Assembly: GCF_009858175.1 (NCBI RefSeq)
Contig: NZ_CP047393.1
Coordinates: forward strand, 1,178,001-1,242,000
DNA: 64,000 nt
Direction: 5' to 3'
From: Pontibacillus sp. HMF3514
GTDB taxonomy: Bacteria; Bacillota; Bacilli; Bacillales; BH030062
The notes beneath the pieces are model-generated. The model ran no database searches. It was not told the origin of the DNA and worked only from the letters and a program-made list of their open reading frames with translations. Numbering within the stretch: the first letter of the stretch is position 1; every line of letters starts with the position of its first letter. This document shows, piece by piece, positions 27,009 through 45,131 of this stretch. The translations under genes were made by a program, and so were the position numbers.

Positions 27009-27186
27009 TGCATTCTAGGGAATCGAAATAACTAAGAATTAACAAGGGGACGGTTCTGCTGTTTGTTGGTTTTGATATATGAACACGTCCGGGTAGACCC
27101 TTTTCTACTTTTTATAGGAGTTTTGTTATAAAATGACAAGATTGATATACTTTAAGGAAAAGAAGTAAACAAAGGGAGAGTTATTG

Positions 27187-27510: not shown

Positions 27511-29939
27511 TGACAGACACGAAACTTATCACCCAAGATCTACAGAACGAAATCATCTACCATATTCAGCATTCATCTACGATTTACTTACTTAGTGCTT
27601 TTGTGATGAAGTCAGGGGTGAGTATGATGTTGCCTGCTCTTCAAGAAGCGGCTCATAGAGGTGCTGATATAAAAATCTTAGCTGGTGATTATTTGTTCGT
27701 TAGTCAACCAGAAGCTATGGAGTTACTAACAGAGCTCCCTAATGATCAGGTAGAAGTTCGATTGTGGCAAAGTAACGGACGTTCATTTCACCCCAAAGCC
27801 TTTTTATTTAAACAAGAAGATGAGGGCTCTCTAATTGTGGGATCCTCAAACTTGTCACGTTCAGCTTTAACGAGCGGAGTAGAGTGGAACCTCTTTTTGA
27901 ATAAATCTGTATCTGAGGAGACCTACCAAGATTCTTTGGATCAATTTATTCACTTATTTTATGAATTCAATACAATGGAGATTAATAAAGAAACGGTAAA
28001 ACAATATAAAGTTCGATATGATGCCTTTCATGTGAAGCATCCAGATTTAGCTCGCAAATGGACGAAGAGTGAAGAAATTGAAATGACATTAGGTCCTGAA
28101 AATGAGTCCATTAAGTTAGTCAAATCTGAAGAAGAAACCTATACAACTAATCGAGACAAGCCTGAACCACGATTTGCTCAGCCAGAGGCGCTTGATTCTT
28201 TACATAACACAGTAGAGGAAGGCTATGACAAGGCCATGGTCGTTATGGCAACTGGGCTAGGGAAGACGTATCTAGCAGCTTTTTTTGCCGAGCACTTTGA
28301 TAGTGTCTTGTTCATTGCTCATCGGGAAGAAATTCTTCACCAGGCCAAAGCTTCTTTTGAGCATGTAAACCAGGGTAAGTCGGGCGGCATTTTTAATGGG
28401 AAAGTAAAAGATGGAGATCACCCAATGGTATTTGCATCGATTTTCACATTAAGCATTCGTGATCACTTATCTAATTTTAACCCAGATAGCTTTGACCTCA
28501 TTATCATCGATGAATTTCACCATGCATCCAGTAAGTCGTATCAAAACGTAATCCAGTACTTCCAACCGAAGTTTCTAATGGGAATAACCGCAACACCAGA
28601 ACGTACAGATGGCCAAGATGTGTTTGCGATTTGTGATGGGAATGTGGCCTATGAAATGAACTTTATCCAAGCGATCCAAAGAGGTTGGTTAGCTCCATTT
28701 CAGTATTATGGTGTTTATGATGAGATCGACTATGCTCAAATTACGTGGCTAGGAAACAAATATGACGAAGAAGAACTAGCTGAAGCACAATTACAGGAAA
28801 GCACAGCTGAGAACATTTTAGATAACTGGAAGAAACATAAACAAACTCGAACGCTGGTATTTTGTTCATCTATTAAACAGGCAACGTTTTTATCTGAGTA
28901 TTTTAATGAGCAAGGATACCAAACGATTAGCCTGCATTCCAAAACGAAGGATATTAGTAGAAAAGAAGCTATCCAAAAGCTAGAAACGAAACAAATTGAT
29001 GCCATATTTACTGTGGATGTATTCAATGAAGGTGTTGATATACCTGCAGTAGATACGATTTTATTTGTCCGTCCGACTGAATCATTAGTGGTGTTCACAC
29101 AGCAAATTGGTCGTGGTTTGAGAAAGCATCTAGAGAAAAATCACTGTACGATTATTGATTTGATTGGGAATTATCGAAATGCTGATGTGAAGTTAAGGCT
29201 TTTTGATACGAGTGATCAAGAGAGAAAAGGCAAGAAGGAATTCGAACCCATAACGCCTGATGGCTGTACAGTGCACCTAGATCCAAAAGCTATTGATCTG
29301 TTGGAGCATCTGCGTAAGAAAAGAAGCCCTCGAAAAGAACGTGTGAAAATGGACTTTGAGGAAGTGAAAAACCATCTGGGTCGACGTCCAACTTATTTGG
29401 AGATGCATTTGAATGGAACCGTGAATTCCAAAGAAATTAAAAACAACTTTAAGAGTTATGCTGGTTTTCTTGCGTGGGCAGAAGAACTTTCTGAGGAAGA
29501 GAAGCGAGTGTATCTTGATTATAAGAATTGGCTTGAAGAAGTAGAGTCAACTGGGATGAGTAAGAGTTATAAGATGGTTGTTTTGAAGTATATGTTGGAA
29601 CGAGGTCCTAGGGAATGGTATAAGCCTGTAACACCTACGGAAGTTGCGCCATACTTTCATAGATTTTTGATGGAGAAGCCTTATAGGAAACTTGCTGATT
29701 TTAATGATAAAGATTCAAGAAAGCTGTGGGAATATGATGAAAATAAAGTTGCTAGGTTAATCGCGAGAATGCCTATGACAAAATGGAGTGGATCTAGTAA
29801 AGAACTAGTCCTATTTGATGGAGAAACTTTCTCACTAGCTTTTAATATTGCTCCAGAAGATACCTTAATGTTGTATGAGATGACAAATGAGATTTGTGAA
29901 TATAGACTACACTGGCATTTTGAAAGAAAAAGTAAATAG
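27510..29939 (+). CDS. PLD-domain DEAD/DEAH (SF2) helicase
   Basis: An 809-residue protein. Residues 1-150 are a PLD-like nuclease-type domain with HPKAFLF near 93 and GSSNLSRSAL near 110, an HxK-type half site. The SF2 helicase core follows: Walker A ATGLGKT near 246, DEFHH near 333, TATPERTDG near 361, and the C-terminal helicase domain with QQIGRGLRK. The last ~230 residues (RRPTYLEMHLNG... onward) are a tail seen in this helicase group. It is coupled to the MazG-like gene by an ATGA overlap. It is likely a DNA-processing or defence enzyme; the biochemical activity is unproven. Confidence 0.85.
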   Translation: MTDTKLITQDLQNEIIYHIQHSSTIYLLSAFVMKSGVSMMLPALQEAAHRGADIKILAGDYLFVSQPEAMELLTELPNDQVEVRLWQSNGRSFHPKAFLFKQEDEGSLIVGSSNLSRSALTSGVEWNLFLNKSVSEETYQDSLDQFIHLFYEFNTMEINKETVKQYKVRYDAFHVKHPDLARKWTKSEEIEMTLGPENESIKLVKSEEETYTTNRDKPEPRFAQPEALDSLHNTVEEGYDKAMVVMATGLGKTYLAAFFAEHFDSVLFIAHREEILHQAKASFEHVNQGKSGGIFNGKVKDGDHPMVFASIFTLSIRDHLSNFNPDSFDLIIIDEFHHASSKSYQNVIQYFQPKFLMGITATPERTDGQDVFAICDGNVAYEMNFIQAIQRGWLAPFQYYGVYDEIDYAQITWLGNKYDEEELAEAQLQESTAENILDNWKKHKQTRTLVFCSSIKQATFLSEYFNEQGYQTISLHSKTKDISRKEAIQKLETKQIDAIFTVDVFNEGVDIPAVDTILFVRPTESLVVFTQQIGRGLRKHLEKNHCTIIDLIGNYRNADVKLRLFDTSDQERKGKKEFEPITPDGCTVHLDPKAIDLLEHLRKKRSPRKERVKMDFEEVKNHLGRRPTYLEMHLNGTVNSKEIKNNFKSYAGFLAWAEELSEEEKRVYLDYKNWLEEVESTGMSKSYKMVVLKYMLERGPREWYKPVTPTEVAPYFHRFLMEKPYRKLADFNDKDSRKLWEYDENKVARLIARMPMTKWSGSSKELVLFDGETFSLAFNIAPEDTLMLYEMTNEICEYRLHWHFERKSK

Positions 29940-30079
29940 AAATTTGTAAAAACTTTGCTGGATAAACATTCCCACTCATTAAAGTAAATTAAAGAAATGT
30001 TTAGGAGATACATGCGGGAAATCGCTGAAAAACTAGAAGCTTCGTTATATCACTCCACAATACCAATATCTAGGTTTAT

Positions 30080-30163
30080 AACCGGTTTGAAGAAGTATGG
30101 GAGAATGCCATCACTTTAAGTGATGAGTGGATCTGTGAATATGAGCGAGATTATACATTTTAA
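30080..30163 (+). pseudogene. Short C-terminal remnant of a lost gene
   Basis: A frame reading NRFEEVWENAITLSDEW then CEYERDY to a stop at 30161-30163 looks like a real protein tail, similar in style to ends of PLD-like or helicase-associated domains. Upstream in the same frame it is quickly closed. The rest of the 299-base gap 29940-30238 shows no other gene. Confidence 0.35.
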
Positions 30164-30238
30164 GATTCTAAACAAGAATTAAGCCAAGTAAAGGTTACCT
30201 TCAAAGTATAATTTAAATGTTATTGAAGAGGTGTTTTT

Positions 30239-31132
30239 TTGTTTATTATAATTGGGCAGAGAATTGACTATAATTCAAGTTATAAAGATATACCATTTAA
30301 AGAGTATCACTTTCCTAAGAAATATAGATATCAGGTCCAACAAGGAGATATATTTATTTATTACCAAGGTGATAGACATAAAAAGGAAAATAGATATTAT
30401 TATGGATGTGGATTAATAGGAGAAATCACAGTTTCTAACAATGGAGAGGATTACTTTGCTAAGATAGAAAAAGCATATAGATTTCCAAATAATGTTCCGA
30501 TTTATAATCCTGATGGAGGCTATTATGAATCAATAGGTTATCAACAAATTAGAAAAAAGGAAATTCCCGCATGGCAAAACTCTATAAGAAAATTATCTAT
30601 TACTGCATTTGAAGAGATTATACTGGCATCAAATTTAGAAAAAAGGTATATAGCAGAACTTTTTAATTCACCAATTAGGATAAAACCAAAAGAAAAAAGT
30701 AGTATTAAGGAAGTAATGAAAGGGATTACTGAACAAAAATTAGAGGGGATAATAGAAAATACGGGTGATGAAGAAATTAATGAAATACTTTCGACTCTAG
30801 ATAGTAAGGGTTCTATTGATATAAAACATGCCTTTCAAAAAGTTCGGAAAGCTAGTCGTAAAACAATTATCTCTTTAAAAGAGTTATATAATTATTCGTG
30901 TCAAATTTGCGGTTTCAATCATTCCGAACACTACGAAGTAAATGTATCTGAGGCACATCATATTGAATACTTTTCTGAAACTCAAAATCATCACCCAAAT
31001 AATTTGGTAATATTGTGCCCAACACACCATCGGTTAGTCCATGCAGGGGAAGCTATCTTTGATCGTGAAAGAAAAGTATTTATTTATAAGAATGGGTTCG
31101 AGGAACCTTTAATATTAAATTTCCATTTATAA
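30239..31132 (+). CDS. HNH endonuclease with PUA/EVE-like N-terminal domain
   Basis: A 297-residue protein. The first ~100 residues (GDIFIYYQG..., YYYGCGLIGEI) resemble PUA/EVE-type modified-base-reading folds. The C-terminal part is a zinc HNH nuclease: CQICGF near 220, EAHHIEYF near 237 and CPTHHRLVHAGE near 259. Translation starts at TTG 30239 behind GAAGAGGTG. It probably cuts DNA carrying a particular modification, a type IV-like role. It lies just upstream of the SNF2/GHKL system but is separated by about 500 bases, so it may be independent. Confidence 0.75.
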   Translation: MFIIIGQRIDYNSSYKDIPFKEYHFPKKYRYQVQQGDIFIYYQGDRHKKENRYYYGCGLIGEITVSNNGEDYFAKIEKAYRFPNNVPIYNPDGGYYESIGYQQIRKKEIPAWQNSIRKLSITAFEEIILASNLEKRYIAELFNSPIRIKPKEKSSIKEVMKGITEQKLEGIIENTGDEEINEILSTLDSKGSIDIKHAFQKVRKASRKTIISLKELYNYSCQICGFNHSEHYEVNVSEAHHIEYFSETQNHHPNNLVILCPTHHRLVHAGEAIFDRERKVFIYKNGFEEPLILNFHL

Positions 31133-31645: not shown

Positions 31646-32368
31646 ATGGGGGTGGTAGAAATTAGTAACTACTGGGAAGTGGAGAACAATGACTATTTAG
31701 TTCTGGTGTCACAAGATGGGAGTAAACATTATCTTACAGCTCAAGAAATTTATTCAGTAGAATTTAAAGATAAGAAGGAAGTACATAACCTCGAAGTAAG
31801 TAAGCCATCCACTGATCTAGAAAAAGTGAATTTCTCCAAAGTTCCAATTGATATAAAACTTTTTTTGGAACCAATTGAAGAGAATGGTGAAATAAGGATA
31901 AACATCAGAATAGTTGAAGAACAAAACAAGGTAGAAATACCTATAAAAGACATAGACAGTTACAACAGAAGCCACGTGATTATTGATAATGTATGGCGCC
32001 CTTTTGTAAAAGGAGCTTTAAGAGAAATAAAGTCAATTCTGGAAAAGGCTTCAATTAATAATATAGGTAAAATAACAATTAAAGAATATATGGAATTGTT
32101 GAAGTTAGATAGTCCACTTGTAATAGATAATATTGACAATATTCCTCAGAAGAATTTTTATAAATCCCCTGATAAAAATATTTCTAACCCACTCTTCAAT
32201 GGACAATTGTATCCTTATCAAAAACAAGGTGTTAAGTGGTTGAATATGATTGTTAAAGATGAAGCGGGGTGTATATTAGCTGATGAGATGGGGCTGGGCA
32301 AAACAGCTCAGGTAATTGCAGTTTTAACCTCAGAATATCAAATGAATAAAAGTCCATCCCTGGTAGTT
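31646..32368 (+). pseudogene. SNF2-family helicase, N-terminal part (interrupted by IS)
   Basis: The first 241 codons of a SWI2/SNF2 ATPase. About 190 residues of an uncharacterised N-terminal domain lead into the helicase core: YPYQKQGVKWL (Q-like motif) and LADEMGLGKTAQVI (motif I, near 210), ending SPSLVV. Then an IS3-family element begins, adding about ten foreign residues before a stop at 32401. Removing the element and one TAGTT copy joins this part in frame to the second half. The start ATG 31646 lacks a good site; the GGGGGTGG at 31648 might serve a slightly later start. The intact protein would have about 645 residues. Confidence 0.88.
32364..32368. repeat. Target-site duplication, left copy
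   Basis: TAGTT at 32364-32368 is repeated at 33694-33698. The bases belong to the SNF2 codons for Val-Val and are duplicated on each side of the element. Confidence 0.8.
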
Positions 32369-32421
32369 TATAATGGACCCATAAATCTAGACACGAAATA
32401 AGGAGATGTTAAGGTAGGTTT

Positions 32422-32718
32422 ATGGGTAGAAGAAAAAGATATACATCAGAATTTAAATCCAAAATCGTGCTAGAAATCTTAAAAGAAGAGAAATCCATTT
32501 CCGAGATCTCTTCTGAACATGGAATTCATGTGAATCAACTACGCCAATGGCGGAAAGCAGCACTGGAACAAATGCCACAAATCTTTGAGACCAATAATAA
32601 GAAAGTGGATCAGATGAAAGAGGAGTATGAAAACCAAATTGAGAACCTATACGCCGAAGTAGGTCGTTTAACCACGCAGTTGTCGTGGCTTAAAAAAAAA
32701 TCTGGCATTAAAGACTAG
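32422..32718 (+). CDS. IS3-family transposase OrfA
   Basis: A 98-residue helix-turn-helix protein (RRKRYTSEFKSKIVLEILKE; ISEISSEHGIHVNQLRQWRK) followed by a leucine-zipper-like coiled coil. It is the DNA-binding part of an IS3 transposase. It ends beyond a run of nine A at 32692-32700, where the OrfB frame is already open; slippage there could make an OrfAB fusion. Confidence 0.92.
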   Translation: MGRRKRYTSEFKSKIVLEILKEEKSISEISSEHGIHVNQLRQWRKAALEQMPQIFETNNKKVDQMKEEYENQIENLYAEVGRLTTQLSWLKKKSGIKD

Positions 32719-32734
32719 AGCTGAACGAGTCTCC

Positions 32735-33541
32735 ATGATCGATTGGGAAGGCTCTGACCTCTCCATTAAAGCGCAAGCAGAATTACTCAGCTTAAATCGA
32801 ACCAGTCTTTATTATAAGCCTGTGGAGCCTTCACCTGAGGAGTTGATGATTAAGCATAAGATTGATGAAATCTACACTAAATATCCGTTTTTTGGATCCA
32901 GGCGAATCAAGGAGTTTCTTAAAAACGAAAAGATTTTCGTTAATCGAAAAACTGTGCAAGGTCATATGCGAGAAATGGGTATCGCTGGTATTTCACCTGG
33001 TCCAAACCTCAGTAAAAGGAATCAGCAGCATCGCATTTATCCTTATTTACTCAGAGGTCTGGCCATCACGCACCCCAATCACGTTTGGGGGATTGATATT
33101 ACCTATATTCGATTAGAGAAAAACTGGATGTATTTAGTCGCAATCATAGACTGGTATTCTCGGTATGTAATCAGTTGGGAACTGGATCAAACACTTGAAA
33201 TGGACTTTGTATTAGAAACTGTTAATAGGGCGCTATCTAATCATCAACCGATTATTTTAAACAGCGATCAGGGAAGCCATTTTACGAGCCCGCAATATAC
33301 AGATTTACTTAAGGAAAACGATATTAAAATCAGTATGGATGGGAAAGGGCGAGCCCTTGATAATATTATTACTGAGCGACTCTGGCGAACAGTCAAGTAT
33401 GAAGAAGTCTATTTAAAAGATTATACGAGCCCGAGAGAAGCCCGCAATGAGATTAATAGTTTTTTACATTTTTACAACCAAGAACGCCCTCACCAATCTT
33501 TAGGCTATCAACCCCCTGCCACTGTTTTTAGCCAATCTTAG
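32735..33541 (+). CDS. IS3-family transposase OrfB (DDE integrase core)
   Basis: A 268-residue catalytic part with an rve integrase domain. DDE residues are visible in WGIDITYI, LNSDQGSHFTSPQY and IITERLWRTVKYEEVYL. The N-terminal HTH_21 segment FFGSRRIKEFL is present. The frame is open upstream through the A9 tract (KKNLALKTRAERVSM), so the active form is probably an OrfAB fusion. The element appears complete and may still move. Confidence 0.92.
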   Translation: MIDWEGSDLSIKAQAELLSLNRTSLYYKPVEPSPEELMIKHKIDEIYTKYPFFGSRRIKEFLKNEKIFVNRKTVQGHMREMGIAGISPGPNLSKRNQQHRIYPYLLRGLAITHPNHVWGIDITYIRLEKNWMYLVAIIDWYSRYVISWELDQTLEMDFVLETVNRALSNHQPIILNSDQGSHFTSPQYTDLLKENDIKISMDGKGRALDNIITERLWRTVKYEEVYLKDYTSPREARNEINSFLHFYNQERPHQSLGYQPPATVFSQS

Positions 33542-33693
33542 GAGAGTCCTCCTCTCGTAAGAATCTATGATAGACATGAATCATCAAAGGTGGAATAATA
33601 CAATAAACCCCAGAACTCTCCTAGGTTCGTGTCATAGAAGTATTACCCCACCTTAAAAATTCAAATTCCGTGTCTTGACGAAAGGGTCCACCT

Positions 33694-33698
33694 TAGTT
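33694..33698. repeat. Target-site duplication, right copy
   Basis: TAGTT, identical to 32364-32368, at the right junction of the IS3 element. Confidence 0.8.
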
Positions 33699-34913
33699 GC
33701 TCCAGTATCATTATTAGAAAACTGGCGGAGAGAATTTGAAAAATTTGCTCCGAGTCTAAAAGTCTGTATCCATCAGGGTGGAAACCGTACAGGCTTTTAT
33801 AAAGATTTTTTAAATTTTAATGTAATACTAACTTCGTATGAAACCATTTTAAGAGACAATTCTTTATTTATGATGCTTAATTGGCATATAGTTATTGCAG
33901 ATGAAGCACAAGCTATTAAAAATCCAGTAGCAAGAAGAACAATAGCTATAAAAAATTTAAATAAAAAAATTAGTTTAGCAGTTACCGGCACCCCCATTGA
34001 AAATAACTTAATCGATTTATGGTCATTACTTGATTTTGTTTTGCCAGGATATATAGGTGAATTAAATCATTTTAAGAAGACTTATACTCAAGATGTTGAA
34101 AGTGCTTTGGAATTAGAGCCCTTAGTCTCACCATTAATACTTAAAAGGACTGTTACAGAAGTTGCAGGAGATCTTCCGGATAAGATTGAAGTACCTCAAG
34201 TGATTGAACTTAGACATCAAGAAGCTAAACTTTATGAGGATATAAGAGAGCAAATATTTGATGAATATGGGGATAATGCTAATTTAGTGTCATTAATTAA
34301 ACTTAGAATGTTTTGTGCACACCCTAATTTACAAACCAAAAGTGTATATAATCAACTACATGAATTCAGTAAATATGAGAGGTTAATAGAAATAGTTGAG
34401 GAAATAAGAGATAACAACGAAAAACTTATTATATTCACTTCATATAAAAAGATGACTGATTATATGGTTGATGACCTTAGTTCTAGGTTTGGTTTGTATT
34501 GTGATTTTATTGATGGGAGAGTAGATGTTACAGAAAGGCAAAAAATACTAGATGCATTTAGCGAAAGAAATGGAACTGCAATCTTAGTACTGAATCCTAA
34601 AGCAGCTGGTTCGGGTTTGAACATTACAGCTGCAAACCATGTAATACATTATAATTTAGAATGGAATCCAGCTATAGAGGATCAAGCTTCAGCTAGAGCT
34701 TATAGAAGAGGACAACAAAGACCTGTTACAATACATCGGCTTTTCTGCTCAGGAACTGTAGAAGAAATAATAAATGATAGGTTGAATAGAAAAAGAGATA
34801 TATCTAGTGCGGCTATAATAGGTACTGATGGTAGTGATGATGATAAAGCTGATATTTTACAAGGATTAGTTATGTCTCCTTTAACTAAAAAAAGAGCAGG
34901 TGATAGTTATTAA
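33699..34913 (+). pseudogene. SNF2-family helicase, C-terminal part (interrupted by IS)
   Basis: The second half of the split SNF2 ATPase. It opens APVSLLENWRREFEKFAP (motif Ia), then IVIADEAQAIK (DEAQ box, motif II), AVTGTPIENN (motif III), FTSYKKMTDYM, NPKAAGSGLNITAANHVIHY (motif V) and ASARAYRRGQQRPVTIHRL (motif VI). All catalytic motifs are intact, so only the insertion disables it. A stand-alone product from an internal ATG would lack Walker A. The next gene overlaps its end. Confidence 0.88.
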
Positions 34914-35337
34914 AACTTATAAAAATTATAAATTACAAATTATAAGCAAAATTTTAAGTCCAAACGACACCGGAGAAACGGGGGGACACCAAGCAGGGAT
35001 TTTAATTCCTAAGAGTAATCAAGTAATCAACTTTTTTCCGAATTTAGGTAATGATAAAAAGAATCCGAGAGTTAAGCTTCGATTTTATGATGATTATGGT
35101 GATTACTGGGATTTTATGTTTATTCATTATAATAATAAATTTTTTGAAGGAACTAGAGATGAGTACAGATTAACTGGGATGACATCTTTTATCAAACAAA
35201 ATAATTTAACTTCTGGAGACGAAATATTTTTATCACGTGATAACGATCAATTACATCTCAGTTACAAACAATCAAGCAATGAAGATTCACAAACAATTAT
35301 GAAATTAAGTAAAAGTTGGAAGGTGATTAAATTATGA
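34900..35337 (+). CDS. EcoRII-N / B3-like DNA-binding protein
   Basis: A 145-residue protein that resembles the N-terminal effector-binding pseudobarrel of EcoRII and the plant-B3-like fold of BfiI. GETGGHQAGILIPKSN and the end RLTGMTSFIKQNNLTSGDEI fit that domain. It would recognise a DNA sequence and give the system its target specificity. It starts at GTG 34900 inside the SNF2 3' end and its stop overlaps the next gene's ATG (ATGA). It is one of five same-direction, tightly packed genes. Confidence 0.7.
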   Translation: MIVIKTYKNYKLQIISKILSPNDTGETGGHQAGILIPKSNQVINFFPNLGNDKKNPRVKLRFYDDYGDYWDFMFIHYNNKFFEGTRDEYRLTGMTSFIKQNNLTSGDEIFLSRDNDQLHLSYKQSSNEDSQTIMKLSKSWKVIKL

Positions 35338-36941
35338 CAGTAACGAAAACTAAAAAAGTACCTCCTCATGCCAAAAGAACTATAGAAGGTTTAAGAGATA
35401 CTGGGTATGATTTTAATACAGCAATAGCTGATATAATTGATAACTCTATCGCCGCTAATGCCTCTTTAATAAATATTGATTCAGAGATGGACTTCGAAGG
35501 AAATATAACAATTTACATATGTGATAATGGTACTGGCATGTCAGAAGAGGGTCTCGATAAGGCAATGACATATGGTTCACCAGAAAGAAACAATCCTAAA
35601 AGTTTAGGTAAATTTGGGTTAGGATTAAAAACTTCATCTACTTCATTTTGTAGAAGGTTGTCAGTTACTACTAGAAACGAAGAATCCGAAGGTATCTATA
35701 AGGCTTGTTGGGATTTAGATCATGTAGGTGATGTAGGGGATTGGGAACTGCTTTATTTGGAACCTACAAATGAAGAACTTGAATTACTTTATAAAACTGC
35801 AAAAGGTAATTCAGGTACAGTAGTTACATGGGAAAAAGTTGATAGATTATTGAAAGATTATCAAGACCCAGGAGGCACCTATGCAAGAAGAGCTATGGAT
35901 AAGTTAATAGCAAGTTTGAAAGAACATATTGCCATGGTTTATCAAAGGTTCTTAGATAATAATAATCCAACTGCTGAGAATGTAAGTATATTTGTACAAG
36001 GTGAAGAAATAGAGGCTTGGGATCCATTTTGTACTCAAGAAGAAAATACAGAATTAGTAGGAGAGCATACTCAAAACGTGGAATTTGAGGATGGTACTCA
36101 AACTTCATTTACAGTTAAAGCATATGTTTTACCAAGGAAAGAAGAATTTTCAACAGAAGAAAGTTGGAAGAATGCTAAACTCAGAAATGATTTGCAAGGA
36201 TTTTATATCTATAGAGAGAACAGATTGATTCATTTTGGTAACTGGTTAGGGATGTTTTCTAATGAACCTCACGGTACTCTTCTTAGAGTTGAATTTTCAT
36301 TCGATTACTTAATGGATGAAGCATTTGATGTAGATATAAAAAAATCAAGAGTTTTGTTAAATAGAGATTTGTTTGATTGGTTAAAGAAGGAATTTCTTCC
36401 AGCACCAAGAAGAGCTGCTAATGATAGATATAGAGTAGGAAAAAAACAAAATGTTAAAAGTGCTTCTAAGAATGCTCACACTACATCAAATGTAAGCATT
36501 GGTAACCATGAGAAAGAAGTTCAGATATCTAATGTAGAAGTAACTAATAAAGAAAATAATAATGCTGAGGTAACGAACTCAAAAGGTAAAGTTCACATTA
36601 ATTTACCAATTTTAGATCCAGTAAAAGATGGGGAATTCCATGTATCTGCAGTAGACTCAATTGAAGATGGGGTTTTATGGGAGCCTGCATTAATTGGTAA
36701 ACATCATGCTGTAAGAATAAATACAAATCATGATTATTACCAAAAAGTGTATCTTCCCAATTTAAACTCTGGTGTTACTATACAAGGGATGGATTCTCTG
36801 CTGTGGGCAATATGTGAAGCTGAATTAGGCACAATAAATGAAGATACTAAGTTTTACTTACGAGAATTAAGGATTGAAGTGTCCAGAATTTTAAGAAGGT
36901 TGGTTCAGGATCTCCCCGAACCTGAATTAGAAGATGAGTAA
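35334..36941 (+). CDS. MORC/MutL-like GHKL ATPase
   Basis: A 535-residue protein. The Bergerat ATP-binding fold is clear: N-box DIIDNSIAANA near residue 31 (with Asp where many members have the catalytic Glu), G1 DNGTGMSEEG near 63, G2 LGKFGLGLKTSS near 91, and G3 SGTVVTW near 159. A S5-like transducer region and a low-complexity Asn-rich stretch near 390-420 follow. Such ATPases clamp on DNA and act with nucleases. In predicted restriction systems related MORC-like ATPases occur with SNF2, HNH, Vsr and 5mC-methyltransferase genes, as here. The ATG overlaps the previous stop and the next gene overlaps its own stop. Confidence 0.85.
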   Translation: MTVTKTKKVPPHAKRTIEGLRDTGYDFNTAIADIIDNSIAANASLINIDSEMDFEGNITIYICDNGTGMSEEGLDKAMTYGSPERNNPKSLGKFGLGLKTSSTSFCRRLSVTTRNEESEGIYKACWDLDHVGDVGDWELLYLEPTNEELELLYKTAKGNSGTVVTWEKVDRLLKDYQDPGGTYARRAMDKLIASLKEHIAMVYQRFLDNNNPTAENVSIFVQGEEIEAWDPFCTQEENTELVGEHTQNVEFEDGTQTSFTVKAYVLPRKEEFSTEESWKNAKLRNDLQGFYIYRENRLIHFGNWLGMFSNEPHGTLLRVEFSFDYLMDEAFDVDIKKSRVLLNRDLFDWLKKEFLPAPRRAANDRYRVGKKQNVKSASKNAHTTSNVSIGNHEKEVQISNVEVTNKENNNAEVTNSKGKVHINLPILDPVKDGEFHVSAVDSIEDGVLWEPALIGKHHAVRINTNHDYYQKVYLPNLNSGVTIQGMDSLLWAICEAELGTINEDTKFYLRELRIEVSRILRRLVQDLPEPELEDE

Positions 36942-37764
36942 CATTGATGTTTTCAATATATTAAATAAACTACAAATGAATTATGATGTAAACCTTGAAG
37001 TAAAAAACTTATCCCCTCTTGAAATCAGACCAACTGATTTGGAAAAGGGAGAAGGTTTTATGCTTAGATTAATGATTGATTGGAGAAGTATCTCCGCAGA
37101 ATTTATTCCCGATAATTTTTCGGCTAAATTAATTCAAACAATGGGGAGAACCACAAATAAAAACGTATTTAATGTTATAGCTAGAAAAGTGTTAGAAGAC
37201 CAAAAAAAAATAGATATGAAGATTAACCATAAGGACGTGAGTCCTATATCATCCACTTTATGGGATGATCATTGGTCTCTCATGGAGCTAAAGGTTGAAA
37301 ATCACAATATTATCGTTAATGAAAAAACAGTAGAAACAATTGAGGATAAGTTATTTGATGTAGGGAATGATTTATTGGGATTAATTTTATCACTACTTCC
37401 TCTTGATTATTCTCGAGATATAGAGTTTGAATTATTGCCAGAGGGTGCTGTTTCGCGCGTGAAAGTTAATAAATATGAAAGATCTCCTGCTAATAGACAA
37501 GCATGTATAGCCATACATGGTACAGTATGCAAGGTTTGTGAATTTGATTTTGAATCTATGTATGGGAGAGAATTAGGGAAAGGGTATATTCATGTACATC
37601 ACTTAACTCCAATATCTGAAATGGGGGAAGGCTATATAATTAATCCAACTACTGATTTAGTACCTATTTGCCCTAACTGTCACGCAATGATTCATAGAAG
37701 GAATCCACCTTATAGTATAAGTGATTTAAAATCGATAATAAGATCTAATAAAATATATAAATAG
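36934..37764 (+). CDS. HNH endonuclease of the GHKL/SNF2 system
   Basis: A 276-residue protein. The N-terminal ~190 residues are an unassigned alpha/beta region. The C-terminal zinc HNH domain has CKVC near 197, YIHVHHLTPISEMG near 219 and CPNCHAMIHRRNPPYS near 245, all ligands and the catalytic His present. It overlaps the GHKL gene by eight bases, so it is translationally coupled and is the likely DNA-cutting subunit of the system. Codon use is AT-rich like its neighbours. Confidence 0.85.
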   Translation: MSNIDVFNILNKLQMNYDVNLEVKNLSPLEIRPTDLEKGEGFMLRLMIDWRSISAEFIPDNFSAKLIQTMGRTTNKNVFNVIARKVLEDQKKIDMKINHKDVSPISSTLWDDHWSLMELKVENHNIIVNEKTVETIEDKLFDVGNDLLGLILSLLPLDYSRDIEFELLPEGAVSRVKVNKYERSPANRQACIAIHGTVCKVCEFDFESMYGRELGKGYIHVHHLTPISEMGEGYIINPTTDLVPICPNCHAMIHRRNPPYSISDLKSIIRSNKIYK

Positions 37765-37878
37765 TTAAAAATTATATATTCTAATTTTTAAGTGATTACA
37801 TGTTTGAATAGTTAAAAATCAAGTGTGTAATCACTAGTTTTCTAAAACTAATATACTTATACATCATTACCATAATAA

Positions 37879-38178
37879 TTAGATAATATCTGTATCATTT
37901 AAATAATCATAAATTCTCACTTTTTCAGCTTTACTTATACCTTTTAGAAATTGTAAATTAAATTCATTTTTTATATTTTCTATACTATAAAGTAATATAA
38001 TATCTGCTTTATTGGCTTCAATGCCAATTGATAGGTCTATTAACCTTTCTGATTCATCTAGACTATCTACAAAGCCATTTACTAATTCCAAATCTTTTTT
38101 GTTTATAAAAACCTTCAGTTCTTCTATTTTCTTTTGTATATTACTGTCTTCTTGACAATATATAACCACCCGATTCAT
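37879..38178 (-). CDS. Small resolvase-N-terminus-like protein inside the GHKL system
   Basis: A 99-residue protein transcribed against its neighbours. NRVVIYCQEDSN at the start and KADIILLYSIENI near residue 58 resemble the N-terminal strand pattern of serine recombinases, but the catalytic Ser-containing motif is not evident and no DNA-binding tail is present. A good AGGGGGA site lies eight bases before the ATG, so it is probably a real gene. It is divergent from the methyltransferase gene with 98 bases between. It could be a small control protein or a decayed recombinase. Confidence 0.5.
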   Translation of the reverse strand: MNRVVIYCQEDSNIQKKIEELKVFINKKDLELVNGFVDSLDESERLIDLSIGIEANKADIILLYSIENIKNEFNLQFLKGISKAEKVRIYDYLNDTDII

Positions 38179-38276
38179 TGTTATATTCCCCCTAAAAAAT
38201 CGAATTTAAAAATACGAATAAATTAAAGTTTCTGATATACTTAATATAAAGTATCAACTTACGGAAGGAAATAATA

Positions 38277-39263
38277 ATGTCATATGATTTTATAGATTTG
38301 TTTGCAGGAATAGGCGGAATGAGGTTAGCTTTTGAACCTTATGGAAGATGCGTATTTTCATGTGAATGGGATACAAAAGCTCAAGAGACCTATGAAAAAA
38401 ACTTTGGAGACAAGCCTGTAGGTGATATAAAGAAAATAGACGAAAAAGCTGTTCCTGGACATGATATTCTACTAGCAGGATTCCCATGTCAGCCATTTTC
38501 TCTTGCTGGAGTCTCAAAGAAAAAAAGCCTAGGTAAAGAACATGGATTTTTAGATGAAACACAAGGAACTCTGTTTTTTGACATTGCTAGAATTTTAAAA
38601 GAAAAGCAACCTCAAGCCTTCCTTTTAGAGAATGTAAAAAATTTAAGAACTCATGACAAAGGAAAGACATTCAATAAAATTATGAAGGTCTTAGAAGAAG
38701 AGCTAGGTTATACCGTATATGCTAAAGTTCTTAATGCTAAAGGATTAGTTCCTCAAAGAAGAGAAAGAATATATATTGTAGGTTTTAAAAAGCCTATAAA
38801 ATTTAATTTTCCAGATATACCTGAAAATGGTCCTGCTATTATCTCTATTTTACAAAAAAATGTAGATCCGAAGTACACTTTATCTGATAAACTGTGGGAA
38901 TACCTTAAATCTTATAAAGAAAAACATTCTAAAAAGGGGAATGGTTTTGGATATGGATTGGCAGATTTAGATAGCTTTAGTAGAACACTCTCAGCAAGGT
39001 ATCATAAAGACGGATCTGAAATTCTTATACCACAAAAAGGGAGAAACCCAAGAAAACTTACCCCAAGGGAATGTGCAAGGCTTCAAGGGTTTCCTGATAG
39101 CTTTGAAATCCCAGTAAGTAATACAGCTGCATATAAACAGTTTGGTAATAGTGTCCCTGTTCCTGTGGTAAAAAAAGTTGCAGAACAAATTATACATGCA
39201 TTGGAAAGAAATGAAACTATACAGACTGATATTGATATTAAAAAGAATGCTGTTGTAGATTAG
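38277..39263 (+). CDS. DNA (cytosine-5-)-methyltransferase
   Basis: A 328-residue 5mC methyltransferase with all main motifs: I DLFAGIGGMRLAFE, IV GFPCQPFSLAG (catalytic Cys near 69), VI ENVKN, VIII QRRERIYIVG, IX RKLTPRECARLQGFP and X QFGNSVPVPV. It would protect host sites against the neighbouring GHKL/HNH/SNF2 nuclease. Its own promoter region lies between it and the divergent small gene. ATG 38277 follows GGAAGGA. The Vsr gene follows convergently. The recognition sequence cannot be read from sequence. Confidence 0.93.
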   Translation: MSYDFIDLFAGIGGMRLAFEPYGRCVFSCEWDTKAQETYEKNFGDKPVGDIKKIDEKAVPGHDILLAGFPCQPFSLAGVSKKKSLGKEHGFLDETQGTLFFDIARILKEKQPQAFLLENVKNLRTHDKGKTFNKIMKVLEEELGYTVYAKVLNAKGLVPQRRERIYIVGFKKPIKFNFPDIPENGPAIISILQKNVDPKYTLSDKLWEYLKSYKEKHSKKGNGFGYGLADLDSFSRTLSARYHKDGSEILIPQKGRNPRKLTPRECARLQGFPDSFEIPVSNTAAYKQFGNSVPVPVVKKVAEQIIHALERNETIQTDIDIKKNAVVD

Positions 39264-39403
39264 TGAACCCTATATAAAGGTTGCACGTTGCACAATTTTT
39301 ATTGTGTTATGACTTTTTTGTAGAGGATTTCGCCAATATCAATAGCTTAGTCTATAAATAAAGTAATTCGCTTAAATAATCTACTTATAATTTTGATTAT
39401 TGA

Positions 39404-39856
39404 TCATTGTTTAATTTTAATGTAACTCTTTATCTCTTCCCGCTTTTTCGCTTCTTCAATAAACTCCACAATCGAATTCACAGTCAAAGTCAAATTTTTT
39501 CTAATATCGTGCTCCCAGACCCTCAACAGATGCCAACCATTATTTAAATAATGGTTGTTTACCTCTTCGTCTCTTTCCTTATTCCTCTTAAGCTTATGAA
39601 ACCAAAACTCTTGATTGTTTTTAGGCATATTAGCATGGAGCTCACAACCGTGCCAAAAACAAGAGTCTAAGAAGATAACTATTTTATATTTTTTTATAGC
39701 TATATCAGGACTACCAAATAGTGATTGTACGTTTTTACGAAATCTATAACCTCGTCTCCATAATTCTTTAGATACTTGATTCTCTATAGAGGTATCTTTG
39801 CTTTTAATAGCACGCATATTTTTTTGGCGAGTTGATTTGGAGTGAACGTCTGCCAT
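39404..39856 (-). CDS. vsr: Very short patch repair endonuclease Vsr
   Basis: A 150-residue Vsr family nuclease. KSTRQKNMRAIKSKDTSIE is the typical opening, the metal-site Asp lies in GSPDIA, and the zinc/His cluster in FLDSCFWHGCELH is intact. It nicks beside T:G mismatches that arise when 5-methylcytosine deaminates. It converges with the methyltransferase gene across 140 bases. In this gene group Vsr may act only in repair or may be part of the nuclease system. Confidence 0.93.
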   Translation of the reverse strand: MADVHSKSTRQKNMRAIKSKDTSIENQVSKELWRRGYRFRKNVQSLFGSPDIAIKKYKIVIFLDSCFWHGCELHANMPKNNQEFWFHKLKRNKERDEEVNNHYLNNGWHLLRVWEHDIRKNLTLTVNSIVEFIEEAKKREEIKSYIKIKQ

Positions 39857-40127: not shown

Positions 40128-41381
40128 ATGGGATTGGGAGAACAACAGTTCAACTTTATAGACTTGTTTGCCGGGTGTGGGGGATTTAGTGAAGGTTTCT
40201 ATCAAGCTGGCTTTAGAGCATTGGCTCACGTTGAAATCGATTCTCATGCTTGTGAAACAATTAAAGAACGTATGCGCTATTATGGTTATAGTGAGGAAGA
40301 AATTCAGGCTTCCGTACTTAATGAAGACTTGACAGATCCAGGGATTAAGTTTCAACTGGCTAACTTAGTTGAAGAACAAGACGTGGATATTGTGGTTGGT
40401 GGACCACCATGCCAATCCTTTTCATCATTAGGACGTGCTAAGGATCCGGATTCAATGAAACATGATCCGAGGAATTTCTTGTTTGAAAACTATATAGATA
40501 TTATCAATTATTTTAATCCTAAAATTTTCGTTTTTGAAAATGTAAAAGGGATTTTAAATGCAAATGTAAATGATGAACGAATCATAGATACTATACTCGA
40601 CCGTATGTCTGAGAACTACAAGGTGACCAAAGACTTAAAGAAAATTGTTCTGAATTCTGTAAACTATGGTGTCCCACAAACACGTGAACGTGTCATTATA
40701 GTCGGAGTTCGTCATGATCTAACTGTGACACCAGAAGAGATTTATGAATCGATTGAGTACACACATCATGATGTGAATGGATTCCCTGATGAAAGTCTTG
40801 AATCATATGTAACCGTTGGAGAGGCGATCAGTGATCTTCCTAAGCTACGACCAGGAGAAGGCGCTGAACAGTTTGATTTTAAACCTGAAGCGTTGAATCG
40901 ATATACGAAAAAGCTAAGAGATCCTGAGTTTGGATATCTTTATAATCATTATGCTCGTGGACATAATGAGCAAGATATGGAACGTTACAGACTAATGAGT
41001 AAAAACCTATGGACACTAGGGGAACTGTATGAAAATGTTCCAAGCTTGGTCCATGCGAAAAAACGCTTATTTAATAATAGCTATGTTGTTCAACAAAAGG
41101 ACAAACCTGGGCGTACTATTATTGCGCATCTGTATAAGGATGGAAACCAGTTTATTCATCCCGACCACACGCAGGCGAGGACTTTTACCGTTAGAGAAGC
41201 TGCCCGTATTCAGTCTTTTCCAGATGATTTTAAATTCATGGGATCCCGTACGCAGCAGTATAAGCAAGTAGGAAATGCTGTGCCTCCTTTAATGGCAAAA
41301 CAGATAGCCGAGAGTATCAAAAAGTATTTGATGCAGATTGAGGAAACCAATGATGTAAGGAGTAAGACAAATGCTTTTTAA
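40128..41381 (+). CDS. DNA (cytosine-5-)-methyltransferase M1 of a LlaJI-like system
   Basis: A 417-residue 5mC methyltransferase. Motif I is DLFAGCGGFSEGFYQAGF, motif IV GGPPCQSFSSLG with the catalytic Cys, motif VI FENVKGI, motif VIII QTRERVIIVG, and the C-terminal motifs are REAARIQSFPDDF and QVGNAVPPLMAKQ. It is the first of two tandem methyltransferases followed by McrB/McrC-type genes, the layout of LlaJI, where two enzymes methylate the two strands of an asymmetric site. GGAGGTG lies nine bases before the ATG. It overlaps the next gene by 11 bases. Confidence 0.93.
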   Translation: MGLGEQQFNFIDLFAGCGGFSEGFYQAGFRALAHVEIDSHACETIKERMRYYGYSEEEIQASVLNEDLTDPGIKFQLANLVEEQDVDIVVGGPPCQSFSSLGRAKDPDSMKHDPRNFLFENYIDIINYFNPKIFVFENVKGILNANVNDERIIDTILDRMSENYKVTKDLKKIVLNSVNYGVPQTRERVIIVGVRHDLTVTPEEIYESIEYTHHDVNGFPDESLESYVTVGEAISDLPKLRPGEGAEQFDFKPEALNRYTKKLRDPEFGYLYNHYARGHNEQDMERYRLMSKNLWTLGELYENVPSLVHAKKRLFNNSYVVQQKDKPGRTIIAHLYKDGNQFIHPDHTQARTFTVREAARIQSFPDDFKFMGSRTQQYKQVGNAVPPLMAKQIAESIKKYLMQIEETNDVRSKTNAF

Positions 41382-42927
41382 ACATGTTTCAGAAGAATCT
41401 GCTAAGGAGCGAAAAAAGTTCTTTCTTGAAAAGATCAACATGATTATTCGTATGGTAGAAGAGTATTGCAGTTTGCATGATACTAATGTGAATCAATATG
41501 AACCGGATTCAAACAAGGCTGCCATTGAATTGAATGAGATGGGGATACTTGATTCAAAGAAAGACGATTTAACGCAGTTAAGAAAGACTATTGGTGCTCC
41601 TGAGTATGAACGTCTATTGCAGGTTCTATCTTATTACCACGATCATAAAGAACAGATGAATCATCTGTTGAAAAAGTTCTATAATAGCTATCGTTCTGAG
41701 CTTCAGAGAAAGACCAGAGAAAAGGAATCTTTTACAGTCGCAGATTTTTTTGCAGGAGCAGGCGGATTGAGCTTAGGGTTCTCTCAGGAAGGATTTAGGA
41801 TTGAACTGGCAAATGAAATTGATGAGTTGAGTGCTAAAAGTTATGAATTCAATCATCCTGAAGTTCCGAACCATAAAATCATTAATGACGATATAAAAAA
41901 CATTGTTGATCATATGGAAGATTATATCGATACGGATATTGATGTTGTGATCGGTGGACCTCCATGCCAATCTTTCAGTACCGCAAACCAACAGAGAATC
42001 ATTGAGGATCCACGTAATGTTCTCTATAAGCATTTCGTACGTGCAGTAGAGAAGATTAAACCTAAGTTTGTGATTATGGAGAATGTTAAGGGGATGAAGA
42101 AAGTAGCTGACCAGGTTGTCGAGGACTTTCATAGAATCCAGGTAGATGTGGATGGAGAAGATGTTCACTACAACATGGACTATAAAATCTTCAGCTCCTA
42201 TGATTTCAGTGTCCCCCAGAATAGAGAGCGCTTGATTTACATCGGTGTTCGGTCTGATGTCGAAAAAACGATTGATATTAATTATGACAAGATCGCAGCT
42301 GATATTATGGAACAAACAGAAGGAACTCCTCGTTACGCTCTAAAGGATGCTCTTGATCAAATCAAGCCCCTTGAGTCCGGCGAAATGAAGAACATGACTG
42401 AAAAGGATAGTGAAATATCAGGCAAAAAAGTAGCTGGTAATGAGTATGGATCGAACGATTACCTAGATCTCATTAACGGAGGAGAACATTATCCGATTGT
42501 TTTCAATCATAAAGCTCGTTATGCTAATGAGAATAACCTTCAGATCTATGGACGAATGGATCAAGGAGACGACAGTACCAGTGAACGGATTGCTGACATT
42601 ATGCCTTATAAGCACCGTAGTCATATCTTTAAGGATAAGTATTTTAAACTAGTGGCTGACAAACCTTCTCGTACGATTACAGCTCATATGAAAATGGATT
42701 GTCATTCTCATATTCACCCAACGCAAGTTCGTAGTCTTACCCCGAGAGAAGCAGCGCGAGTTCAATCGTTTCCGGATGATTTTGTGTTTTTAGGCCCTTA
42801 CCTGAAAACATACATGCAAATTGGTAATGCTGTCCCCCCTCTTATGGCTAGAGGGTTTGCCGCAGTTATCAAGAAATACTTGGAGCGTTTAAAGAAAACA
42901 TCAGAACAAATTGAATTAAGCTTATAG
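41371..42927 (+). CDS. DNA (cytosine-5-)-methyltransferase M2 of a LlaJI-like system
   Basis: A 518-residue 5mC methyltransferase with a ~125-residue N-terminal helical extension before motif I (DFFAGAGGLSLGFSQEGF). Motif IV is IGGPPCQSFSTANQ, VI MENVKGM, VIII QNRERLIYIG, and the C-terminal motifs are SLTPREAARVQSFP and QIGNAVPPLMARG. It overlaps M1 and is followed by a terminator hairpin. With M1 it would mark both strands of a non-palindromic target, protecting it from the McrBC-like nuclease downstream. Confidence 0.93.
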   Translation: MLFKHVSEESAKERKKFFLEKINMIIRMVEEYCSLHDTNVNQYEPDSNKAAIELNEMGILDSKKDDLTQLRKTIGAPEYERLLQVLSYYHDHKEQMNHLLKKFYNSYRSELQRKTREKESFTVADFFAGAGGLSLGFSQEGFRIELANEIDELSAKSYEFNHPEVPNHKIINDDIKNIVDHMEDYIDTDIDVVIGGPPCQSFSTANQQRIIEDPRNVLYKHFVRAVEKIKPKFVIMENVKGMKKVADQVVEDFHRIQVDVDGEDVHYNMDYKIFSSYDFSVPQNRERLIYIGVRSDVEKTIDINYDKIAADIMEQTEGTPRYALKDALDQIKPLESGEMKNMTEKDSEISGKKVAGNEYGSNDYLDLINGGEHYPIVFNHKARYANENNLQIYGRMDQGDDSTSERIADIMPYKHRSHIFKDKYFKLVADKPSRTITAHMKMDCHSHIHPTQVRSLTPREAARVQSFPDDFVFLGPYLKTYMQIGNAVPPLMARGFAAVIKKYLERLKKTSEQIELSL

Positions 42928-42933
42928 TAGTTG

Positions 42934-42965
42934 AACCTTCGCATTTTATATGTGAAGGTTTTTTT
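42934..42965 (+). terminator. Terminator after the two methyltransferase genes
   Basis: AACCTTCGCA pairs with TGTGAAGGTT across a short AT loop, followed by seven T. It separates the methyltransferase unit from the nuclease unit, which could allow methylation to be established first. Confidence 0.8.
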
Positions 42966-43046
42966 ATGAAGGTGATGCTAATAATGGAAGTTATCGAATT
43001 ATGTTAAAATTAACAAGCCAAGATTAAATAACAAGGAGACTTATAT

Positions 43047-43711
43047 ATGAGAATCATTTCATTTATTAAACAGCTTAGTTTAACAAATGTCGGAAGATCT
43101 GGGATGAATGATAGGTACTTCCTTTTCCCTCAAAAAGATGATGACGTAATAAAAGCTTTCTTCACCCGAGGTCACTCAGAAGAATTTGAGGTTATTGATA
43201 AGGAGACTTTGGAGGTTTATAAGTTGAAGGTTACATTCCCTAAGAACGGTGAATGTCGCATTACCAAGTTTGGTGACTATGTTAGGAATAAGAATTTGTA
43301 TGCAGGAGATGAATTAATCTTGGAAAAAAGGAGTGAAGGGATGGGGGGAATAGAATACTTTATCGACTATATTAGATATGAAACACGCATTATTCTAAGA
43401 TACAACCGGAATACTAAAGCCTATTACACTTGGAATCAAGAACGATTTCACTCTTTTTTCCCTGACTTGCCACAGAATGTTCGAGTAAAGGATAAAGATA
43501 ACTTCATAAATATAGAAATATCTTTTAAGGATTCTATAATGTTGAGGGCAAATGCCAAAGAAAAAACACCAGTTTACCATTTGGAGGGGTAAGCCACTTT
43601 TCTGATCAAGAAGCATTAAAGCAAATTATCTTGGAAAAGGAAAACGATGGAACATACCGCTTGTATAAACCGTTTGAATGGAAGTTTCATGATATTGAAA
43701 CATTTAAATAA
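43047..43711 (+). CDS. B3/EcoRII-N-like DNA-binding protein, frameshifted near the C-terminus
   Basis: The uninterrupted frame runs to 43592 (181 residues). NVGRSGMNDRYFLFPQKDD and GDYVRNKNLYAGDELIL resemble the EcoRII-N/B3-like pseudobarrel seen in restriction proteins. The stop at 43590-43592 follows GGGG (43586-43589). In the -1 frame the protein continues VSHFSDQEALKQIILEKEN ... to a natural stop at 43709-43711, giving about 221 residues. One missing G explains the break. It lies between M2 and the McrB-like gene and probably supplies sequence recognition to the nuclease. It could be a separate DNA-reading subunit; LlaJI-type McrB proteins usually carry this domain themselves. Confidence 0.65.
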
Positions 43712-43753
43712 TTTAAATAGATGAATTAATTACATAGAATAAGGAGCATAAAC

Positions 43754-45130: not shown

Positions 45131-45131
45131 T

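What the first reader, a model, noticed from the sequence alone, without database searches (positions are those of the whole stretch)
31646..39856. Predicted SNF2 / EcoRII-N-like / MORC-like GHKL ATPase / HNH / 5mC-methylase / Vsr defence system
Four overlapping genes (SNF2, B3-like reader, GHKL ATPase, HNH nuclease) form one unit, followed by a cytosine methyltransferase and a convergent Vsr nuclease. Visible motifs: SNF2 motifs I-VI, GHKL N-box DIIDNS with DNGTGM and GKFGLGLK, HNH zinc residues, all 5mC motifs and the Vsr core. Genome-context work (Iyer, Abhiman and Aravind, 2008, on MORC/MutL homologues in restriction-modification systems) predicted such combinations; I know of little experimental work on them. 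This exact gene set, with a stand-alone EcoRII-N-like reader and an extra small reverse gene, may be undescribed.
Basis: partly seen in the sequence, partly recalled or inferred. Interest (0 to 1): 0.85.

Follow-up and report, generated by a model that had tools for sequence, protein, structure and literature searches.

The report
Transposon-broken MORC restriction gene cluster
A bacterial gene cluster that looks like an energy-driven DNA-cutting defence, built around a bacterial cousin of the MORC proteins that silence DNA in animals and plants, sits here with one gene split by a jumping element; the cluster type was predicted in 2008, and the comparison here suggests which kind of short DNA word it reads.

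Summary
SNF2, EcoRII-N-like protein, MORC ATPase and HNH nuclease form one overlapping unit, followed by a 5mC methyltransferase and a convergent Vsr. SNF2 is split by an IS3-like element present in eight copies in this genome, so this copy is probably dead. Of 63 loci fetched by the ATPase (window not counted), 20 carry SNF2 (18 HNH, 16 reader, 20 methyltransferase, 16 Vsr), 36 carry Z1 (MZA-type), none both, 7 neither. Iyer et al. 2008 predicted the combination (SNF2 + HNH/EcoRII-like + VP1/RAV), so it is not undescribed; nine text searches listed no experimental study of it. New here: the ATPase passes the 2008 MORC motif test; SNF2 and Z1 kinds look like sister systems; the methyltransferase has the target-recognition core of Dcm/M.EcoRII, matching the EcoRII-N reader, and where no reader was found that core differs. 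Best reading: a restriction-modification system of EcoRII-like (CCWGG-type) specificity whose cutting arm is a reader-SNF2-MORC-HNH machine. Cutting, exact specificity and methylation sensitivity are inferred.

The parts
31646..32401 (+). SNF2 5' piece (unassigned N-terminal domain + motif I); ORF runs into the IS
   Evidence: Pfam SNF2-rel_dom 6.8e-12 at aa 191-237; own SNF2 profile positions 4-229
32369..33695 (+). IS3-like element splitting SNF2 (orfA 32422-32718, orfB 32735-33541; 3-base flanking repeat)
   Evidence: 8 copies in the genome, this one included, identical over the 1241 bases searched; terminal inverted repeats; ends common to 8 copies; a 3-base flanking repeat fits 7 of 8 (in 2 of these only 2 bases could be read), not L111
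33675..34913 (+). SNF2 3' piece (rest of the motor); the ORF's first bases lie in the IS
   Evidence: Pfam SNF2 4.4e-44, Helicase_C 5e-21; own profile positions 223-625
34900..35337 (+). stand-alone EcoRII-N-like (B3-fold) DNA reader
   Evidence: Pfam EcoRII-N 1.8e-15; PDB EcoRII 3hqf 2.8e-09; T-G-x-H and G-T-R-x-E-x-R invariant in the 14 sequences aligned
35334..36941 (+). prokaryotic MORC-family GHKL ATPase
   Evidence: Pfam HATPase_c_3 2.2e-26; motif GFYIYRENRLI; best PDB sequence hit human MORC2 8.1e-11; Foldseek best MORC2 and Morc3 1.1e-15, TM-score 0.41-0.44 by query length
36934..37764 (+). HNH nuclease with an unassigned N-terminal domain (about aa 1-155)
   Evidence: Pfam HNH 9e-06; C199, C202, H222, H223, C246, N248, C249, H250, H254 invariant in 10 sequences; model pLDDT 78
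37879..38178 (-). small reverse ORF, head to head with the methyltransferase; possibly a degenerate resolvase-like domain; membership in the system unproven
   Evidence: no Pfam hit; weak match to a similarly placed ORF in L074, 11 of 2000 shuffles as good
38277..39263 (+). 5mC methyltransferase with Dcm/M.EcoRII-type target recognition domain
   Evidence: Pfam 3.9e-95; TRD 40/87 identical to E. coli Dcm; the M.HhaI TRD does not align likewise
39404..39856 (-). Vsr-type endonuclease
   Evidence: NCBIfam vsr 143.2 bits, cut-off 97.85

Best explanation
A restriction-modification system of EcoRII-like (CCWGG-type) specificity in which the usual endonuclease is replaced by a four-protein ATP-driven machine. 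Proposed working: the methyltransferase marks the host's sites; Vsr repairs the T:G mismatches left when 5mC deaminates; on incoming DNA the EcoRII-N-like reader binds the unmarked site; SNF2 moves or pumps DNA from there; the MORC ATPase dimerises on ATP as a clamp that holds or loops the DNA; this licenses the HNH subunit to cut. Shown by sequence: the parts, their linkage, conserved catalytic residues, the split of SNF2, the shared recognition-domain core. Inferred: complex formation, specificity, block by methylation, translocation, clamping, cutting. In this genome the IS separates SNF2 motifs I and II, so restriction is probably off while methylation and Vsr may go on.
For: Linkage: SNF2-type loci hold SNF2 20/20, HNH 18/20, reader 16/20, methyltransferase 20/20, Vsr 16/20, in two gene orders. 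Matched recognition: all 17 reader-bearing systems (16 + window) have the Dcm/M.EcoRII core R-T-[LI]-S-A-R-Y-x-K-D-G; the 4 without a detected reader have S or N for that R and are less like Dcm (27-33% v 38-60% of aligned TRD residues). On the ATPase tree those 4 fall in two places, one nested among reader-bearing rows. Of 34 Z1 loci with a methyltransferase ORF, 33 lack the core; the other, L042, has an EcoRII cassette beside it. The window's LlaJI-type methyltransferases and M.HhaI are unlike it. Precedents: CglI/NgoAVII couple a B3-bearing nuclease to an SF2 ATPase active on unmethylated sites (PMC4267653, passages); in VcSduA, a GHKL-nuclease, ATPase and nuclease mutants lose defence (PMC12137116, passages).
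Against: No experiment. Seven of 20 loci also match the EcoRII endonuclease profile nearby (truncated in L025, only a short divergent ORF in L027), so there the site is guarded twice and the module might be an accessory. Four of 20 lack a detected reader; the same four lack Vsr. The covariation rests on two lineages. The TRD core may also fit CCNGG-type sites; exact specificity was not tested. The N-box holds Asp where MORC2 and MutL hold a Glu (21 of 21 SNF2-type incl. window; MORC2; MutL and the role of that Glu recalled). Whether EcoRII-N binding is blocked by methylation was not found: the key paper (PMC2770665) is not held.
Confidence: 0.55

Rival explanations
1. Silencing without cutting: the MORC clamp and SNF2 compact or entrap unmarked foreign DNA, as MORCs do in eukaryotes, and HNH is secondary.
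For: ATPase is of the MORC family; MORC-1 of C. elegans entraps and condenses DNA (abstract start of PMC8277788, in the listing).
Against: HNH zinc and catalytic residues are invariant in the 10 sequences aligned and HNH is found in 18 of 20 loci.
Confidence: 0.12
2. The four genes are an accessory of an ordinary EcoRII/Dcm-Vsr cassette, not the restriction arm itself.
For: 7 of 20 loci have a match to the EcoRII endonuclease profile nearby; an EcoRII-like cassette without these genes lies on E. coli plasmid stretch L107.
Against: 13 of 20 loci show no such match, nor do the 19 different window proteins scanned with Pfam or the window scan with the EcoRII profile (best 14.9 bits, elsewhere); the methyltransferase is kept in 20 of 20.
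Confidence: 0.12
3. Modification-dependent (type IV-like) attack: the reader or the nuclease acts on methylated or otherwise modified DNA.
For: The HNH protein has a weak PADLOC hit to type IV enzymes (1.6e-05). An HNH nuclease (PcaII) that restricts DNA methylated at CCWGG/CCNGG coexists with a methyltransferase of that site in one genome by being repressed (PMC8989522, passages).
Against: Here a methyltransferase with a matching TRD lies beside the module in 20 of 20 loci and would mark the host for attack unless the module is repressed.
Confidence: 0.1
4. Repair role: a MutL-like ATPase working with Vsr at deaminated 5mC.
For: GHKL kinship to MutL; Vsr nearby in 16 of 20.
Against: Vsr is missing from 4 of 20 loci that keep SNF2 and ATPase; patchy distribution, often on plasmids.
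Confidence: 0.05

Closest known systems
MORC operons, group 2 of Iyer, Abhiman and Aravind 2008 (PMC2292703; parts 1-3 of 4 read)
   Same: MORC ATPase, SWI2/SNF2 helicase, HNH or EcoRII-like nuclease, VP1/RAV-type DNA-binding protein, cytosine methylase, VSR.
   Different: Prediction only; no specificity or reader-methyltransferase match in the parts I read. This locus is a new, interrupted member.
MZA (mzaABCDE; called validated in PMC9523054, passages, citing Gao 2020, which I did not read)
   Same: Homologous MORC-type ATPase over about 340 N-terminal residues, 5mC methyltransferase nearby in 32 of 36 Z1 loci, Vsr in 15 of 36.
   Different: Z1, PD-(D/E)XK and AIPR proteins in place of SNF2, reader and HNH; window ATPase matches only 2-351 of 480 MzaB positions; methyltransferase core not Dcm-like in 33 of 34.
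CglI / NgoAVII (PMC4267653, passages)
   Same: 5mC methyltransferase, B3 reader, SF2 ATPase, nuclease; ATP-driven.
   Different: B3 fused to a PLD nuclease; ATPase has DEAD-Z1 domains; no MORC protein in the three-gene system described.
EcoRII (type IIE, CCWGG)
   Same: Reader homologous to EcoRII-N; methyltransferase TRD of the M.EcoRII/Dcm kind.
   Different: No EcoRII C-terminal nuclease found in this locus; reader is a separate protein; ATPases and HNH added.

Membership tests
Prokaryotic MORC family (Iyer 2008) | GhXhhpXXRhl motif in the S5 domain | tested here: met
   window and 20/20 SNF2-type, 36/36 Z1-type, 1/7 of the rest (that one, L053, is a contig-end relative of an SNF2-type row)
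Prokaryotic MORC family (Iyer 2008) | GHKL nucleotide-binding motifs and MORC-like fold | tested here: met
   DNGxGM, GKxGLGLK; MORC2 and Morc3 top, 1.1e-15. N-box base position is Asp, not Glu
MORC operon group 2 (Iyer 2008) | SWI2/SNF2 + HNH or EcoRII-like + VP1/RAV protein, with 5mC methylase and VSR | tested here: met
   read
MZA | Z1, PD-(D/E)XK and AIPR genes beside the ATPase | tested here: not met
   no Z1, MzaD or AIPR profile hit in the window at E 0.05
MZA | ATPase matches MzaB over its length | tested here: not met
   profile 2-351 of 480, 194 bits, cut-off 850; but the MZA-type ATPases L043 and L044 also miss that cut-off (440, 444 bits) though they match 2-479 and 1-446
EcoRII type IIE enzyme | N-terminal effector domain | tested here: met
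EcoRII type IIE enzyme | C-terminal EcoRII nuclease | tested here: not met
   (best window hit to own EcoRII profile 14.9 bits, at 1301-2389)
CglI/NgoAVII class | B3 domain fused to PLD nuclease, DEAD-Z1 ATPase | tested here: not met
   reader and HNH proteins have no PLD hit; no Z1
Zorya / DISARM (PADLOC hits of single genes) | ZorA-C, or DrmA/B/C, beside the SNF2 or methylase | tested here: not met
   10 proteins of the region only: SNF2 hits ZorD, DpdE and DrmD models, the methyltransferase DrmMII, the upstream HNH protein weakly ZorE (0.0014); no ZorA-C or DrmA/B/C among the hits shown (25 of 40 and 25 of 62 shown for two proteins)
Restriction-modification system | cuts unmodified DNA, own modification protects | not testable with these tools
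   needs the E. coli dcm+/dcm- test

The most novel reading that the evidence does not exclude
A class of ATP-dependent restriction system outside types I-IV: a 'split EcoRII' whose stand-alone recognition domain loads a SNF2 motor and a MORC clamp onto unmethylated CCWGG-type sites and only then licenses an HNH nuclease, making it the methylation-directed bacterial counterpart of eukaryotic MORC silencing and a sister of MZA made by swapping the motor and nuclease.
Probability: 0.35. Interest if true: 0.75.

Novelty: new member of a known kind. Interest (0 to 1): 0.5.

Why it matters
What bacterial MORC ATPases do is an old open question with consequences for MORC proteins in plants and animals. 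The predicted recognition match makes it testable in an ordinary laboratory strain, because E. coli K-12 already carries a methyltransferase (Dcm) of the same target class. It also places the SNF2-MORC-HNH class and MZA side by side as likely sister systems that differ in motor, nuclease and ATPase C-terminus.

Tried and rejected
Zorya or DISARM: single-gene PADLOC hits only. MzaB label: best hit but partial, and its cut-off does not separate the classes. Fold of the HNH protein's N-terminal domain: Foldseek gave no hit under E 0.001; a CBASS Cap5 structure came third (0.073, probability 0.99). A reader substitute in Fibrobacter (L002 7284-8081): no Pfam hit near a cut-off. Small reverse ORF: no match in plasmids and only itself in 61 relatives (G391 was not among them). 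Among 4,466 ORFs of 70-160 codons in the 68 loci, the three best scores to it were L082 7075-7536 (64), L074 7454-7759 (56) and L082 6449-6814 (47); the two L082 ORFs are Pfam resolvases, L074's gave no resolvase hit, and 11 of 2000 shuffles reach the L074 score. A profile comparison with resolvases was prepared but not run. A phage carrier: 3 partial hits in 50,697 records, none over 80% of the query. More genomes from other phyla through the genome search: not possible, 'of' takes only G handles. Two papers that the listings made look near, PMC11473606 and PMC8989522, were searched by term: neither holds 'helicase', 'ATPase' or 'Vsr'.
Full report
Observation. Every gene named is present at the stated place, with the stated domains. 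The four genes of the unit overlap by 14, 4 and 8 bases. The SNF2 gene is in two pieces: an IS3-like element occupies 32369-33695. The genome holds eight copies of it, this one included, identical over the 1241 bases searched. Comparing the eight flanks gives common ends and, at this site, a 3-base flanking repeat; 7 of 8 copies fit such a repeat (two of the 7 with only two bases readable) and L111 does not. The residues of motif I are in the left piece and those of motif II in the right one (motif numbers recalled). G391 (same order, ATPase 69% identical) has the same gene arrangement with SNF2 in one frame (L074), so intact copies exist.

Neighbourhood. I collected ATPase relatives from genomes of the order (19 of 397 genomes incl. 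the window's own), the phylum (5 of 398 incl. its own), one genome-collection scan (2 loci), plasmids (43 records with a match, of which I opened 13) and IMG/VR (29 loci). Not tabulated: the window itself, G105 (a fragment), G710, and L118, opened later (its annotation shows helicase, reader, ATPase, HNH, EcoRII-type endonuclease, Vsr and dcm). Within 8 kb of the ATPase and at 30 bits or more: SNF2 20, Z1 36, both 0, neither 7. In the SNF2 group of 20: methyltransferase 20, HNH 18, reader 16, Vsr 16, EcoRII-profile match 7, AIPR 4. In the Z1 group of 36: methyltransferase 32, MzaD 32, AIPR 31, Vsr 15, EcoRII 1, reader 0, HNH 0. One Z1 locus, L088, has a reader-like hit under that limit (25 bits). 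Of the 7 with neither, one (L053) is a contig-end relative of the SNF2 type and the other 6 lack the MORC motif. Two gene orders occur: SNF2-reader-ATPase-HNH, and ATPase-HNH-SNF2-reader in L026, L036 and L049-L051. Linkage kept through rearrangement speaks for one functional unit. The four loci without a detected reader (L002, L003, L027, L052) also lack Vsr; L027 and L052 lack a detected HNH.

Reader alone as a seed. Searching the EcoRII-N family in the order sample of 397 gave 13 genomes with a match: 9 in open frames of 393-420 codons, one of 184, and 3 of about 150, namely the window, G391, and G012 at a contig edge. So the two genomes with the full-length ATPase are the two with a clear stand-alone reader. 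Leaving out the window, which was chosen, that is one coincidence among 396 genomes. In plasmids, the 7 best reader hits are all records with the ATPase; of 2,466 records matched I saw 60 rows, mostly annotated as type II restriction endonuclease in enterobacteria (by organism Klebsiella 1509, Escherichia 364, Enterobacter 261).

Kinship of the ATPase. Iyer et al. 2008 define MORCs by a motif in the S5 domain; the window protein and all 56 others with SNF2 or Z1 neighbours carry it, 6 other GHKL proteins do not. The best solved structures by sequence and by fold are MORC2 and MORC3 (model pLDDT 82; TM-scores about 0.4-0.5, so a likeness of domains rather than a close match). A tree of 64 N-terminal domains puts all 21 SNF2-type proteins in one group of 27 (100/99) that also holds 6 of the 7 'neither' rows; one Z1 locus, L054, branches at its base, and the SNF2 rows are not a perfect clade (3 changes). 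Long branches among the 'neither' rows make their place unsure.

Recognition. I aligned the best methyltransferase hit of each locus. The target-recognition region of the window enzyme is 40/87 identical to E. coli Dcm, 48/87 to the methyltransferase beside an EcoRII-like endonuclease on an E. coli plasmid, and 64/87 to G391's. All 17 reader-bearing systems (window included) have GNGFG and R-T-[LI]-S-A-R-Y-x-K-D-G; the 4 reader-less ones have S or N for that arginine, two of them also GKGFG. A search of whole methyltransferase ORFs found this core in 1 of the 34 Z1 loci that have such an ORF; that one, L042, carries an EcoRII cassette. In the alignment only 18 of 34 Z1 rows had 50 or more residues in the region, which is why I searched the ORFs. 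L027, counted as reader-less, has a 114-residue ORF that matches the N-terminal part of my EcoRII profile (68.7 bits), without a Pfam hit; it may be a diverged reader. The covariation rests on two lineages and is suggestive only. That EcoRII-N reads CCWGG is the title claim of Golovenko 2009, seen only in a reference list.

Mechanism. The closest biochemical model is CglI/NgoAVII, in which a B3-bearing nuclease and an SF2 ATPase form a complex, hydrolyse ATP on DNA with unmethylated sites and cut (passages). Iyer et al. proposed DNA looping by MORCs between recognition and cleavage sites. I add the matched recognition and the exclusive choice between SNF2-reader-HNH and Z1-MzaD-AIPR on a related ATPase. 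In this genome the motor gene is broken.

Literature. Nine text searches of the held library ran. Listings were capped (e.g. 20 of 48, 20 of 1,140, 20 of 31, 20 of 68); no listed title or abstract start was an experimental study of this gene set. Subscription papers and preprints are mostly absent, so this is weak evidence. What I saw: PMC2292703 parts 1-3 of 4; PMC8011034, PMC4267653, PMC4081073, PMC12137116, PMC9523054, PMC11473606 and PMC8989522 passages; PMC8277788 abstract start in a listing; Gao et al. 2020 nothing.

Verdict. Ordinary in kind, since predicted in 2008, but untested as far as I could see and now sharply testable.

Noticed in passing
window 40128-46430: Neighbouring LlaJI-type restriction-modification set: two 5mC methyltransferases, a small ORF, an AAA ATPase (McrB-like by recall) and a LlaJI endonuclease (PF09563 4.7e-67).
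   Followed up: partly
window 43047-43592: A second small stand-alone protein with weak likeness to the EcoRII-N reader (26 bits, 6e-07 to my profile; no Pfam hit near a cut-off), inside the LlaJI-type set.
   Followed up: partly
window 27184-31132 and 46636-48540: More likely defence genes: MazG-like ORF, PLD + ResIII helicase, HNH protein with a sub-cut-off match to phosphorothioate-DNA restriction enzymes (41 bits, cut-off 180), NERD-UvrD helicase.
   Followed up: no
window 37879-38178; L074 7454-7759: Small reverse ORF head to head with the methyltransferase; a similarly placed reverse ORF lies in G391. The window ORF weakly resembles resolvase-domain ORFs near an MZA-type locus (L082); the L074 ORF had no resolvase hit in Pfam.
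   Followed up: partly
L026, L049, L050, L051: In 4 of the 5 loci with the permuted gene order an AIPR gene, a component of MZA, lies close by, a possible link between the two system types.
   Followed up: no
window 35334-36941, aa 33: Prokaryotic MORCs here have Asp at the N-box position where MORC2 has Glu: 21 of 21 SNF2-type incl. window and 35 of 36 Z1-type (one not read by the pattern).
   Followed up: partly
L025, L027: The ATPase gene is split into two frames in both plasmids, so decay of this system is not confined to the window.
   Followed up: no
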